Of a DNA stretch of 64,000 nucleotides, positions 9,014-53,025 are shown in pieces (position 1 is the first letter of the stretch; every line of letters starts with the position of its first letter). Position numbers and translations under genes: made by a program. The stretch lies in assembly GCF_035083965.1 (NCBI RefSeq), contig NC_089730.1, positions 20,098,527 through 20,162,526 on the forward strand, in the 5' to 3' direction. The notes under the pieces were generated by a model. That model saw only the letters and a program-made list of their open reading frames with translations, had not been told where the DNA came from and ran no database searches. Source of the DNA: Branchiostoma lanceolatum (Eukaryota; Chordata; Leptocardii; Amphioxiformes; Branchiostomatidae).

Positions 9014-9420
9014 ACCGTAAAACCACAAACGTTCGAATATGTAGCATGAAAGCCTCGTTCAGCTTTTTAGTTTCTCGTGTTTGAGTAATAATGTAAAAAG
9101 TTATAGAAGTGTCTTCACTCACTGCCCGTTTCATTCTGTAAACATGCGAATTTTCCCTGCTCATATCGAACCGCAAAACTACATACAGCAACACAACAAA
9201 TGAGTCCAGCTTCTTTGAACTATACACAGGGCTTGATGTCAAGATTAGTTCGCACTCACCATGTCTTACAAGCTTGCAACCAAGGAAGGAAATCAAAGGA
9301 CAAACACATTATATCACGCACTTAACGTTACTATTGTATTGAACCATCTAGAATCGTATTTACTTCATTTGCCCATCAGAGTTTTGGTATAAAACCTAGT
9401 TCTGCCAGATCTTTCTTTAT

Positions 9421-9460
9421 TTACTGACGAGAGATAGCGGATGCTGTCTGAAACGTCTGA
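9421..9460 (+). ncRNA. Small hammerhead ribozyme-like motif, copy A
   Basis: Core CTGACGA (9424-9430), a 7-bp stem II (AGATAGC 9432-9438 with GCTGTCT 9443-9449, loop GGAT), then GAAACGTC (9450-9457). A 3-bp stem I can form (TTA with TGA). There is no real stem III, as in the small hammerhead variants linked to Penelope-like retroelements. The following sequence (TTCAGTCGCTTGAGTAAC) is shared with the copy near 35.5 kb and a fragment near 17.87 kb, so it is part of a dispersed element. Catalytic activity is not shown. Confidence 0.5.
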
Positions 9461-10440
9461 CTGTTTTGAAATTTCATTCAGTCGCTTGAGTAACTATTTT
9501 TTGGCGTAAACACATTATATGCTTTTTTATATTTTGATTTTTAACAGAGCAATGGTGATCGAACTTTCTAGTGTTTAATATGCTTTTAACTAAGGTCTAT
9601 TAGTGTCCATCTAGTATGAAAAGGCCGCTAATAAGAAACAGATTTGAATACATTTTTAAGATTTCCCTAAACAAATATGATTCAAGTGCTTGGGTAGGTC
9701 AAAAGTATCAGCTCTCCTGACTTGAGATGTACTTTTTTTCCAAGCAGTATAAGTTAATTGTGAGCTAGTCATATTTGTGCGGTTTTGCACAAGTGGGTTC
9801 GTTCATATGGTGCCTGATTGATACGGCATTTGGATGCGCAAAAATCTCCGAAGTTTCAGAGAAATATTACTTCTTCAGATCAAATATGATTGTTAAGATT
9901 AATGAAATGTTGGATTTCGCATTTTTTTACACTAGTCATATTTTCATTTGGCACAATTCCCTACATATAGAGCAACCAGCGATTCTGCAGCGTAAGCGCC
10001 TCACATTTGATATCAATCAACGCATTAAGGTGAAATACAATAAGAACTGCAGCAAAATGTACATGTATCCCTCGTGCCATTTTCGAGAACCAGGTATTAC
10101 ACCAATTGCAAACGTGTTCAATAAATAGGATTTGACTCTTTCAATTACCTCTCTTTTAATACTAGTTTGTCTACATGTATGTCTCGGAGTGAGTGAGTGA
10201 GGCAAAAGGTAAGCAATTTTAAAAAAAAGACAATATAATGTGTAAGATAGCTATTACATTCTAAACCAAGAGGAGGAATACTACAAAAAACATCTTCAAA
10301 TCGAAGAATGTTGGTTGATAAAGACATGAATACGATTTGAATATGGTAGTACAGTCATAACCATATATGATACAGTGACTTCCAAAAAAAGAATAAACCT
10401 GTGGCTAAATTGAACTAGGCACTCTTCAGGCAACCTTTAC
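9461..10440. other. Intergenic between Z4 3' region and Z3 promoter
   Basis: AT-rich. The only long plus-strand frame (9775-10128) has no domain I recognise and is treated as chance. No RNA gene seen. Confidence 0.4.
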
Positions 10441-15410: not shown

Positions 15411-16002
15411 TTCTGCGAAGAAAAGGGGAAGATTGAAGACAAAAAGATACCAAAAAACTCCCCTGATAAGCACATTCGTAGATTCGTGTACGCACGTGCA
15501 GTGTCAACGGCGAAGGCCTCTGAGACGTTAACAGCTCTCTTTTCGACATTGTCTCGATTTGCATAACAATGTCCAGAGGGGTTTGTTTACGTCTCAGGGC
15601 CTGCCTTCACCTTCGACACTGTACATGCGTACTCGAATCTACGAATGGGCTTATTTTCATACTGTCTATACCCACGTGCACATTTCTATACTCAAACTAA
15701 AACTGCCATATACATATATATATACTACAAGTACATTTCAGGGTACAAACAGCGATATAGTAGACTGATCACCAATTCTGTCGGTAGAGATCCTAAATTT
15801 TAAGTAAATTGTATATTATAAGAATTAGAATCATGTATGTATGAAGAAAGCTGGGCTAACCCGATAACTATCCTCGCGAAGGTTTAAAAAATGCCCCCAC
15901 ACATTGCTGAAAAGCACTTAACTGCGCATCGGCTTTTTCCCTCGTAACGTTATGCACCCCTCCCCTATGTCCTATAATTTCCGATCCGATGTACGATTCA
16001 CC

Positions 16003-16203
16003 TACTCTCCAAGCAGAGGTCGGTGGGGGAAGATTGTGACCATCTCTCCAAACAGAGATCGGTGGGGGAAGATTGTAACAATCTCTCCAAGCAGAGGTCG
16101 GTGGGGGAAGATTGTGACCTTTCTATCATATGCGGGAGCCAAAACACGAGGCATATGATAAAAAGGTCACAATCTTCCCCCACCGACCTCTGCTTGGAGA
16201 GTA
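16003..16203. mobile_element. Fold-back MITE with 9-bp target duplication (copy 1)
   Basis: Ends TACTCTCCAAGCAGAGGT and its reverse complement. Flanks CGATTCACC (15994-16002) and CGATTTACC (16204-16212) form a 9-bp duplication with one mismatch. The left arm is repeated three times in tandem as 39-bp units at 16005, 16044 and 16083. The duplicated Z2 intron (about 5055) has the empty site CGATTCACCCCC. A 9-bp duplication with long inverted ends suggests a Mutator-like origin; no transposase is present. Confidence 0.75.
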
Positions 16204-16299
16204 CGATTTACCCCCAAATACTCTAGATCTTAAAGGCTTGTAGGAGTTTGTAGGTCATATTTTGCTCTCGTATAAGCGCCAGTATACCAACTCAGTCTT

Positions 16300-17431: not shown

Positions 17432-18050
17432 GTCATTAAAATGTCTTTCCTATATGGCATTAGTCACCATTGAGAAGATGAAACATGACGAAGAATATGT
17501 TATTGACTTGAGTGTTCTTTTTTTTTCATTCCCAACGGCAAAGATACATTTACTGACTCTGCGTTCTTTACACTATACACAACGTCAGGGTTTGATGTCA
17601 AGATGTGCTGAAACTTAATACGACTTATTATTTTCATACCAAAAAGAGGGAACTAATGGATGGTTTTGAAAGATTTTAATTTTGAAATAGTGCAACGAGG
17701 AAGAAATATTTACAAGTTAGCTTTCTAGTCTCATGCAAGACTAACTACGGCGCAGGAACGAAAATGCTACATTTTGACCATAGATTGTTGCTCGATTTCA
17801 ACGTTACCGGAACTTCAACATTTTGACTAAACCTACATCTATATGCGAATGTACAAATCTTATCCAGTTGCTTGAGTAACTCTTTTTGGGGTACCTAAAT
17901 CTATATGCTTCATCTCATATAATACAAATGCTTCAGTCAACATAAAAATACCCAAAAAAGTATTATCAGTTTCTAACCAAAAACGTACAGCCGTTTAACG
18001 AATTTGCAAGTGAAGAAGCTTTGACCGAATGCAGGTGCACTAACTTTATA
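17432..18050. other. Intergenic, no gene seen
   Basis: Contains another copy of the AACGTCAGGGTTTG upstream repeat (about 17581-17615) and a fragment CTTATCCAGTTGCTTGAGTA (17862-17881) of the element that carries the hammerhead-like motif elsewhere. Confidence 0.45.
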
Positions 18051-28660: not shown

Positions 28661-29514
28661 CCAAGAAAACGCACAAATAAACGAATGTAGCATAGATTCA
28701 GATTCAGTTTAATTTCTTATGACTTTGCATATGACATTCCGTAGGAATTACAGTCTCGTTTGGGTATTAAAGCATATCAAACAGTTGCATTGTACTGTAT
28801 CAATATTCTGAATCCCCCCCCCCCCCCCGAGTACCCTCCACATTGATTACTGTCAGGTGCAACATGTTATATCGCGAACAACCATTGGGCAAACTTCAAC
28901 TTGGCGACTCTTAAGAAACCTTGGGTTAAGCTTAAAAATTGCCTTTGCAATGTGTTTCTGAATGTTTGTTTGTCAACTTATAGCCTTAGCTTCCAATTAC
29001 TTGCTTTGGGTCAAACATTCTTGTCAATCTTCCCATTGAAACACATACATAATACTTGAAAAAAGGCCCTCACAAAAATTGGCGGCTCTTTAAGGAAATG
29101 TAGTTCCGATGTTGAAAGTAATACTCATTTGGTCTCGTGTGCATCCCTCCAAGTGTCCGGTTAGATTTTTTTTACATATCCGGGGTTTTATTGTTTATGT
29201 ATTGGATGTCCATTGCGCAGCAAATTATTGTTTATACCGATCTCCGAAACTTCACACGGCTATTGGCCCCGGCTTCAAAAACCTATGCACAAGGCATGAT
29301 GCCAAGTAATAATTCAACCTCAACACGTCTAAGTAGCTTACAACCAACGATAGGGGAAAATAAGGCAAACACATCAGCTATCTTTGTTACATTTTACACT
29401 CTTACAACAGAGGAACGAATGGTCCAATTTTCTATTGTTTCATGTCCTTTTAAGTGTCCCTCTGGAAAGAAAACACGTAAACACTGCGTCCTTGAGTCCA
29501 AATTCTCCATGTAC
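28661..29514. other. Intergenic with a poly-C run, no gene supported
   Basis: A 15-base C run lies at 28814-28828. A plus-strand frame at 29137-29649 has no recognisable domain and runs antisense into Z9, so it is not called. GGATATGTAAAAAAAATC-type AT-rich filler otherwise. Confidence 0.4.
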
Positions 29515-30586: not shown

Positions 30587-30723
30587 TTCTAAGAACATCA
30601 ATGGATTATCATAAATCGAAAGATGATAAACATCCCCATACAATCTGTATCGCCCTTTTTGTTATTAGAGACTTACAGCATTGGATATAAAATATTCTTT
30701 TTACACAACAAAAAATCTCACCT

Positions 30724-30762
30724 GCTGACGTTTCGGTGTCTCTCAGACACCTTCTTCAGAGC
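30724..30762 (-). ncRNA. Small hammerhead ribozyme-like motif, copy C, sense in Z9 intron
   Basis: On the minus strand: GCT, CTGAAGA (30759-30753), perfect 7-bp stem II GGTGTCT/AGACACC with loop GAG, GAAACGTC (30734-30727), AGC. Stem I is 3 bp (GCT with AGC) and stem III is essentially absent. This matches the small hammerhead class associated with Penelope-like elements. It sits in intron 1 of Z9 in the sense of transcription. Cleavage is not demonstrated. Confidence 0.5.
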
Positions 30763-30781
30763 TTCTGACCTGAGTACTCTG

Positions 30782-30852
30782 ACCGCTAAAAGTAGCCGAG
30801 GTAGGTGTTCTCATCGCAAAAGCGCCAGCTACTTCGGCTACTTAGAGCGGTG
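30782..30852. repeat. Inverted repeat next to the ribozyme-like motif
   Basis: ACCGCTAAAAGTAGCCGAGG (from 30782) pairs with CTACTTCGGCTACTTAGAGC (ending near 30850), with few mismatches. It is probably part of the same retroelement remnant. Confidence 0.6.
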
Positions 30853-31339
30853 ATATATACTTTTAAATCTCTAATATCCTATGTTCTACCAACCTGATGA
30901 AATTAGTTTGAGACTTATAGTATGTTTCCTGGGCAGTCAAAATCAATGGGGAAGCTAATCTCAGGTGCATTTATATCAGGGTGTTTCAAGAACAAGTAGC
31001 GAACAACAGTGACTTTTGAAGCTACCCCCATGCTAACACGTAGATGCAATGGTATACCGGGTTGAACCACTCAAACACGACAACTAGCCAGACTTAAAAC
31101 GAATTGGAACGCCCCGAACTTTGATATTACAAAATAAACACCGAAATGTACATTTACGAGGAACCTACAGCGTAATGGATGTCATTTTCAAGCCCCATAA
31201 CACTTAAAGTTCGTTATGCCCCCCCCCCCCCTATTCAAAGGCGATGTATACGTACGATACACCCATAATTTGACTTGTACTTCTATTTTGCTGCCGAATA
31301 GGCGTCCTTCAGCGCACGCCAATAGCTAACAAGGATCTT

Positions 31340-31512
31340 ACCTGTGTGATTTTGTTGGTAGGGGATCGATAAGGCGTTGTGTTTTCTTCAAAATCGTCAT
31401 GGATTTAGAGACACGATTGCCATCGCCTGCCGAAGGCCGAATGGCGGACAAACACAGCCACAGGTCAGTGCTCGAACAGGTGAAAGGTCAAAGTTTACAT
31501 ACCTGATAATCA
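31340..31512 (-). promoter_or_regulatory. Z9 promoter block and exon 1 donor
   Basis: Donor CACAG|GTAAGATC at 31342; ATGGCGG at 31441-31447 (99 bp); GGTGAAAGGTCAAAG; TTACATACCTGATAATC. Intronic C-run of 13 at 31219-31231. Confidence 0.62.
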
Positions 31513-35060: not shown

Positions 35061-35438
35061 CGGTAGGTCCAGTCGATTTTCTTACTCAACTAATTACGTG
35101 TCCCCTGGCAAATTTTCAGGAGGAATAATTACTGAATGAGTTTCTGAATAGCCCCAACATGTGATTACACAACTCCCGATAATTATATCAGTCAGAAACC
35201 GTGACGATTTTGCCCCAAGGATCTACTCAGAGATTAACTGCTTAAGTCGTTATATTACTTATTTCTTAATTTACAAACGATGTTTGTATTAATTATTAAT
35301 TATTTGCTATTTATTTATCTTAAAAGGCATACATTGTTAGTCCCTCCAGTCGATTCTAAATGGAGCATATAAAAAGGAATTGTAACATCCGTTGACGAAG
35401 TTTAAACATCCAGGTAATAAGATACGGCAAATAACAGT

Positions 35439-35548
35439 TACTCAGGCAACTGGATAAGTATTCCACTGAATTATCCAGTCACTGACGAAATACAGAGGAT
35501 GCTACCTGAAATGTCTGTTTCAAAATTTCTATCCAATTGCTTGAGTAA
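35439..35548 (+). mobile_element. Element with inverted arms around a decayed hammerhead-like motif (copy B)
   Basis: GTTACTCAGGCAACTGGATA (35439-35458) and TATCCAATTGCTTGAGTAAC (35529-35548) are inverted arms. Between them lie CTGACGA (35482-35488) and GAAATGTC (35508-35515), but stem II no longer pairs. This is a dead relative of copy A at 9421-9460. Confidence 0.5.
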
Positions 35549-35815
35549 CAACTGTCATTTGGCTTAAAAATAATGTCTGAAATCACGTCATATTACTTTG
35601 AGACATGTTAGACATCAACGAAATTGACGGGAATGATTAAGTAACAACTCTTGTGAAAACGGCGCACTTCAAAAATTGTTCTGCGAAGCCGTTGCTTCCA
35701 ATTTGTGCTTGCCAGATAAACACCATCATTATCATAGAAATGGCGGGCAGCCCAGCCGTAAAGTGACAAACTGGATCGTCCAGTCGAAAACATGGTCGCC
35801 ATGGAAAGCTATACA

Positions 35816-35955
35816 TACTGTCCAAGCAGACGTTGGTGGGGAAGATTGTGACCTTTCTATCACATGCCCGATCTCTTGGTGGGGAGAGCGGACAGAAAAC
35901 GGGGCATAGGATAAAAAGGTCACAATCTTCCGCACCAACCTCTGCTTGGAGAGTA
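35816..35955. mobile_element. Fold-back MITE with perfect 9-bp target duplication (copy 2)
   Basis: Begins TACTGTCCAAGCAGACGTTGG and ends with CCAACCTCTGCTTGGAGAGTA, inverted arms of about 45 bp including GGAAGATTGTGACC. Exact target duplication AGCTATACA at 35807-35815 and 35956-35964. Same family as 16003-16203. Confidence 0.8.
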
Positions 35956-35962
35956 AGCTATA

Positions 35963-36228
35963 CAGGCCGGCTTTTCATTGACGTCATAACAATTAAAATG
36001 TGATTCCCCCGGCGACCATGTGAGTCGCCTATTGTCCCTCTCTCCGTAGCCGGCTCCCTTAGCCTACTTTTCACTCCATTTGGACCTTTTCTACAATTTT
36101 TGCTCTATAGCTAGATCCGCGGAGCCTGGTAGAGACTAATGCAGTAGCATTTTCTTGTATCTTACAAACGTGTACGCTGTAATCCAACATGGCGCATATG
36201 ACGTCAATTGATCAAATGAAAAGGGCTG
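35963..36228. mobile_element. Tc1/mariner-like MITE with TA flanks
   Basis: Starts CAGGCCGGCTTTTCATTGACG and ends CAATTGATCAAATGAAAAGGGCTG, inverted arms with TGACGTCA inside each (35979-35986, 36199-36206). TA at 35961-35962 and 36229-36230. The 9-bp-duplication MITE inserted at its left edge later, since that duplication includes this element's TACA end. Confidence 0.65.
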
Positions 36229-52039: not shown

Positions 52040-53025
52040 TATATATATTGTTTCCAAAAATTTCTACTTGGAGTCCATTGAAAATCATCTAACGACGGCG
52101 TGCGAGGAGAGTTAGGAACTTTTCCCATTATGATATATGCTAAAATTCATCTCATCAAATACTGGCACCGTTTAGTAAACTTACCTGAGGACTCTTTGCT
52201 TCACGATGCATACAACACTGTATTTACTGGTGATCATGACTGGACAAATCATGCTAAGGACACTCTCTGTTACCACGGCCTTGGACATATATGGATGAAA
52301 CCTGAGTCTTATAAAGTAGATTATATCTGCCGGCTACAAGATACACATATACAAGAGTGGTTTAACCGTATTAGAAGTAGTTCCAAATTGTCTTTTCTCA
52401 ACAAATCAAAAAACCGTTATGAACAAGAAAAATATCTTGATGATATAAATAACGCTGAAATTCGTAAAGCGATAATCCAGTTAAGAATCAGTAGTCATAA
52501 GTTGAAAATAGAGACAGGTAGATATTACAATATAGCCCCTGACCAAAGGTTTTGCCCATACTGTCCAATGAAAATTGAAGATGAATTTCACTATGTCATG
52601 GAATGCTCTAGATATGATGTTTTACGTAATAAATTATTCACATGTCTCAAAACAAGAACAGATTTTAAGAATATCGATACTACCGACCGTTTTGACTATA
52701 TATTTAAATGCAACAATGCACAATACGAAAATAGGTAAATATCTTAACGACTGCTTTCAGATTAGGAAAAATACCGAAACTAATGATTAAACAAACTCGA
52801 TCATAACTGTTACGCTATATAAAAATGTATGCTAGCCCTTATTGTATTGTATTAGTAATTAGGATGGTATATCAAAATATATACTAGCGCCTTATTGTAT
52901 TGTTACACTATTAGTAATTAGAATGTTAAGTTTTATTCTATACTTCTACTTTGTATTATGTTTACGAATTCTTGCCACACTTTGTACCATGTACAATTGT
53001 CGTGCAATAAAGTTCTTCTTCTATT
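52040..53025 (+). mobile_element. 5'-truncated non-LTR retrotransposon insertion
   Basis: About 985 bp inserted relative to the uninterrupted repeat copy at 47845-47875 (GTGATTTTATT | ATTATAATACAT). It holds the C-terminal part of an ORF2-like protein (52100-52738) and a 3' region ending GTGCAATAAAGTTCTTCTTC. Plus orientation, opposite to the zinc-finger genes. 5' truncation and a gene-end tail are typical of LINE integration. Confidence 0.7.
52100..52738 (+). pseudogene. LINE ORF2 C-terminal fragment
   Basis: Frame of about 212 residues that opens without a Met (GTG at 52100). Contains ELGTFPIMIYAKIHLIKYW, a region rich in charged residues, QLRISSHKLKIETGRYYN and the Cys-His knuckle FCPYC...EDEFHYVMEC. 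This combination is characteristic of the carboxy-terminal domain of some invertebrate non-LTR retrotransposons. A one-base shift near 52728 cuts the normal end; KIGKYLNDCFQIRKN continues in the next frame to 52790. No reverse transcriptase core is left, so it is dead. Confidence 0.7.

What the first reader, a model, noticed from the sequence alone, without database searches (positions are those of the whole stretch)
30724..30762. Candidate small hammerhead ribozyme in sense orientation in a zinc-finger gene intron
Seen: on the minus strand CTGAAGA, a perfect 7-bp stem II, GAAACGTC, and a 3-bp stem I. These match the hammerhead core (CUGANGA...GAAA...UH) with almost no stem III. Known: small hammerhead variants without a stable stem III are linked to Penelope-like retroelements and can cleave as dimers. 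Inference: this is a retroelement remnant that may still cut Z9 pre-mRNA in intron 1, or be inert as a single copy.
Basis: partly seen in the sequence, partly recalled or inferred. Interest (0 to 1): 0.75.

Follow-up and report, generated by a model that had tools for sequence, protein, structure and literature searches.

The report
Fossil minimal hammerhead in gene intron
A short stretch in the first intron of a zinc-finger gene has the outline of a tiny self-cutting RNA of a kind known from animal jumping genes; it sits in a piece of inserted DNA that related genes lack, and is probably silent as a single copy.

Summary
Minus strand 30762-30724 reads stem I (3 bp), CTGAAGA, one extra A, a 7-bp stem II, GAAA, CGTC, stem I. 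None of 300 random 64-kb sequences held the motif. By splice-site motifs it lies in sense orientation in a 5'-UTR intron, the predicted cut 138 nt before exon 2. It sits inside about 230 nt that paralogous introns lack.

It is not alone. A second intact motif with a different stem II, and again one extra purine, lies at 9421-9460 (+), in a 193-nt insertion with a perfect 13-bp target-site duplication and an empty site elsewhere in the window. A decayed relative of that copy lies at 35482, a tail-only copy with a 15/16-bp duplication at 17847.

The parts
30724..30762 (-). minimal type I hammerhead-like motif: stem I GCU/AGC, core CUGAAGA, extra A at 30752, 7-bp stem II, GAAA, CGUC; predicted cut between 30727 and 30726
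30717..30720 (-). UGAG, possible outer stem I strand pairing with CUCA at 30774-30771 across an 8 x 3 internal loop
   Evidence: sequence; constrained fold (pairs appear in the constrained folds of 30780-30712, 30790-30680 and 30851-30680, not in that of 30902-30682)
30771..30774 (-). CUCA, other strand of the possible outer stem I
30682..30912 (-). approximate extent of the inserted DNA absent from paralogous introns (about 230 nt; ends uncertain by 10-30 nt)
   Evidence: best excisions 30912-30683 (20.8k paralog), 30916-30682 (27.8k), 30914-30712 (24.4k), each the best of a grid of cuts, no null run; alignments
30903..30923 (-). 5' copy of a weak candidate target-site duplication (ATACTATAAGTCTCAAACTAA)
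   Evidence: weak
30662..30681 (-). 3' copy of the weak candidate duplication (ATGCTGTAAGTCTCTAATAA)
   Evidence: weak
30589..31341 (-). [not shown]
   Evidence: splice-site motifs shared by paralogs; no transcript data
9315..9507 (+). 193-nt retroposed insertion carrying the second motif
   Evidence: 13-bp perfect duplication, empty site at 29.3k
9302..9314 (+). left copy of the 13-bp duplication AAACACATTATAT
9508..9520 (+). right copy of the 13-bp duplication
9421..9460 (+). second minimal hammerhead-like motif: CTGACGA, extra G, 7-pair stem II AGATAGC/GCTGTCT (one G-U), GAAACGTC, 3-pair stem I (one G-U); predicted cut after 9457
35482..35515 (+). decayed relative of the 9.4k motif (CTGACGAA...GAAATGTC, 3 of 7 stem II pairs left, counted by eye), followed by the same tail
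35420..35458 (-). inverted partial copy of the tail beside the decayed motif
17847..17892 (+). tail-only, 5'-truncated copy (46 nt) between ACCTACATCTATATGC and ACCTAAATCTATATGC

Best explanation
[not shown]
Confidence: 0.66

Rival explanations
1. A non-autonomous metazoan retrozyme: a small tandem-repeat element of a few hundred bp that spreads as a circular RNA cut out by type I hammerheads; the window holds monomer relics.
Against: No tandem copies in the window. The 9.4k copy carries DNA on both sides of the cut site and two copies share a 3' end 50 nt past it, unlike a unit bounded by its own cut site. Most retrozyme hammerheads of invertebrates are described as able to form a stable helix III (PMC7761336 passages).
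Confidence: 0.13
2. [not shown]
For: Same position: first, 5'-UTR intron with the start codon at the head of exon 2 (PMC3088659, passages). All core letters and all 7 stem II pairs are intact.
Against: Loopless stem III; hammerhead fold worse than the best fold by 1.8 to 6.8 kcal/mol over five lengths; no conservation data; the 9.4k copy lies on the other strand, upstream of another gene's first exon.
Confidence: 0.06
3. A hairpin beside a hammerhead-like word, with no ribozyme history.
For: Rfam scores far below threshold; an extra nucleotide in the junction; phage and prokaryote matches to the extra-A backbone behave as chance; the bare word without the stem is common.
Against: 0 of 300 random windows; a second motif of the same plan in a retroposed insertion.
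Confidence: 0.09
4. Some other short retroelement that carries an inert relic of a hammerhead.
Against: A tail-only copy and an inverted tail beside a motif copy suit Penelope-like elements (inverted copies: recall).
Confidence: 0.06

Closest known systems
Minimal type I hammerheads of Penelope-like elements (Cervera and de la Pena 2014; Lunse et al. 2017; neither held here; known through passages of PMC7761336, PMC6155905, PMC6466107)
   Same: CUGANGA, hairpin stem II, GAAAC directly followed by GUC, almost no stem III, dispersed copies in non-coding DNA, palindrome at stem III suited to dimers
Poseidon of Anolis carolinensis (PMC11167929, main text read)
   Same: hammerhead close to the end of insertions, a short tail beyond the cut site, insertions that end at a fixed site
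   Different: no coding sequence found here; the tail past the cut is 50 nt at 9.4k; activity unknown here, whereas the anole ribozyme cut only with protein added
Metazoan non-LTR retrozymes (PMC7229834, passages)
   Same: small insert with one type I hammerhead
   Different: no tandem units, helix III without a loop, ends not at the cut site
Intronic hammerheads of amniotes, C10orf118 and RECK (PMC3088659, PMC6155905, passages)
   Same: in an intron; C10orf118 also in a 5'-UTR intron before the start codon
   Different: no evidence of conservation or activity here

Membership tests
Hammerhead ribozyme | CUGANGA and GAAA core letters with UH before the cut | tested here: met
   CTGAAGA, GAAA, GTC
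Hammerhead ribozyme | base-paired stem II between CUGANGA and GAAA | tested here: met
   7 Watson-Crick pairs
Hammerhead ribozyme | no more than one or two extra nucleotides between CUGANGA and its stems (PMC10085705, passage) | tested here: met
   one extra A (30752); one extra G in the 9.4k motif
Hammerhead ribozyme | stem III starting with A15.1-U16.1 | tested here: inconclusive
   A and U present, but the monomer has no loop to close them; a dimer would give ACGU/ACGU (sequence); the predicted dimer fold was another one
Hammerhead ribozyme | Rfam gathering score | tested here: not met
   12.4 against 48.5 bits; so it is called only a minimal hammerhead-like motif
Hammerhead ribozyme | loop contacts between stems I and II | not tested
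   an internal loop in stem I is possible; PMC7761336 says the Penelope-like variants lack helix III or these contacts
Hammerhead ribozyme | self-cleavage | not testable with these tools
   needs in vitro transcription
Penelope-like element | reverse transcriptase and GIY-YIG endonuclease frame | tested here: inconclusive
   none in 10 of 74 ORFs; short 5'-truncated copies would lack it
Penelope-like element | hammerheads in tandem pseudo-LTRs | tested here: not met
   single motif per insertion; truncated copies may hold one only
Penelope-like element | insertion with target-site duplication, 5' truncation and a fixed 3' tail past the hammerhead | tested here: inconclusive
   [not shown]
Metazoan retrozyme | tandem units of 150-450 bp | tested here: not met
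   [not shown]

The most novel reading that the evidence does not exclude
The two intact motifs represent a hammerhead subclass with an eight-letter 5' core, CUGANGA plus one unpaired purine, and a loopless stem III. Retroelements spread it through this zinc-finger cluster, and it cuts only when two copies on the same or different transcripts pair through ACGU, linking cutting to transcript abundance.
Probability: 0.07. Interest if true: 0.6.

Novelty: new member of a known kind. Interest (0 to 1): 0.3.

Why it matters
It shows that a minimal hammerhead can be recognised from sequence alone. The window also gives a local demonstration (duplication, empty sites, a shared 3' end past the cut site) that such a motif travels in retroposed DNA whose RNA was not cut at the ribozyme before being copied. 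The intronic copy offers a simple test of whether a lone minimal hammerhead has any effect on splicing.

Tried and rejected
Looked for the motif in the host genome: none is held. Looked for related ribozymes in viral contigs and prokaryote genomes. The extra-A backbone appears there only as chance would give: 138 matches, 119 distinct, the best with 5 Watson-Crick pairs. These are a control, not relatives. A 23-base word of the 9.4k tail has no match in viral contigs.

Full report
Observation. The minus strand at 30762-30724 reads GCT-CTGAAGA-A-GGTGTCT-GAG-AGACACC-GAAA-CGTC-AGC: a hammerhead outline with 3 bp of stem I, 7 bp of stem II and no loop for stem III. [quoted passage not shown] PMC3088659 (passages) describes core insertions, of which one after A6 and one near C3 had low activity and one in GAAA was expected to be harmless; in the passages seen none is at this exact place.

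Place. The window is a cluster of C2H2 zinc-finger genes read on the minus strand. The fingers look like those of amphioxus; this is recall, not a test. The word TAGAAATGGA occurs 10 times on that strand, each at the head of a zinc-finger frame, and CAGGTAAG donors lie upstream of several. For this gene the intron would be 31341-30589. The predicted cut, between 30727 and 30726, leaves 138 nt of intron before exon 2.

The motif is in extra DNA. Paralogous introns at 8.4k, 20.8k, 24.4k and 27.8k align with the upstream part and with the last stretch before the ATG but lack the middle. Taking out about 230 nt (30912-30683) raises the score against the 20.8k paralog from 64 to 144; a similar cut raises the 27.8k paralog from 39 to 112; the 24.4k paralog, which seems to carry extra DNA of its own, prefers 30914-30712 (32 to 90). 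These are the best of a grid of cuts, without a null. A candidate duplication ATRCTRTAAGTCTCWAA flanks the insert but is weak: 657 of 2000 shuffles reach it in a wide search; in a narrow one 234 of 20,000 shuffles and 388 of 9043 equally spaced window pairs reach it. A cut at its exact borders gives 124, 61 and 99.

Sibling copies show what such insertions are. The 9.4k motif lies in 9315-9507, between two perfect copies of AAACACATTATAT; 0 of 20,000 shuffles reach the flank score. The 29.3k region is an empty site: joining the flanks raises the score from 63 to 100. The stretch after the motif recurs at 35482 with a decayed motif (3 of 7 stem II pairs left, by eye), as an inverted piece at 35458-35420, and at 17847-17892 as a tail-only copy. 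The 17.8k copy lies between ACCTACATCTATATGC and ACCTAAATCTATATGC, and three paralogous sites act as empty sites (best joins raise scores 101 to 167, 74 to 129, 68 to 114). Its 3' end aligns with that of the 9.4k copy, 50 nt past the predicted cut. Shared 3' end, 5' truncation and duplications are marks of target-primed retroposition. Because the tail is joined to the motif, the copied RNA had not been cut there.

Verdict. A real but ordinary kind of thing: a minimal hammerhead fossil in what is most likely a retroelement insertion, in an intron where it could be tested.

Noticed in passing
window 30782-30851, -: A strong hairpin (26-nt arms, 85% complementary, 18-nt loop) lies just upstream of the motif inside the insertion; a BLAST of 30690-30870 found no other copy in the window beyond short words. 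It may be part of the element or a nested one.
   Followed up: partly
window 35813-35963 and 16000-16211: A palindrome of about 140 nt with relatives near 16.0-16.2k in both orientations, probably a foldback or MITE-like element.
   Followed up: no
window 52082-52738, +: A 218-aa open frame without a significant Pfam match; it looks like the tail of a retroelement protein, from recall only.
   Followed up: partly
L132, L133, L146, L151, L155: Viral contigs with two or three matches each to the hammerhead backbone without the extra nucleotide; those listed for L132 (5 bp), L146 (4 bp) and L155 (4 bp) have perfect stems, so they are probably real phage hammerheads.
   Followed up: no
window 28807-28833 and 31211-31237: Long runs of C in the upstream regions of two paralogous genes, not at corresponding places.
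   Followed up: no
window 35420-35515, +: An inverted partial tail stands beside the decayed motif copy, a head-to-head arrangement whose ends and duplication were not worked out.
   Followed up: partly
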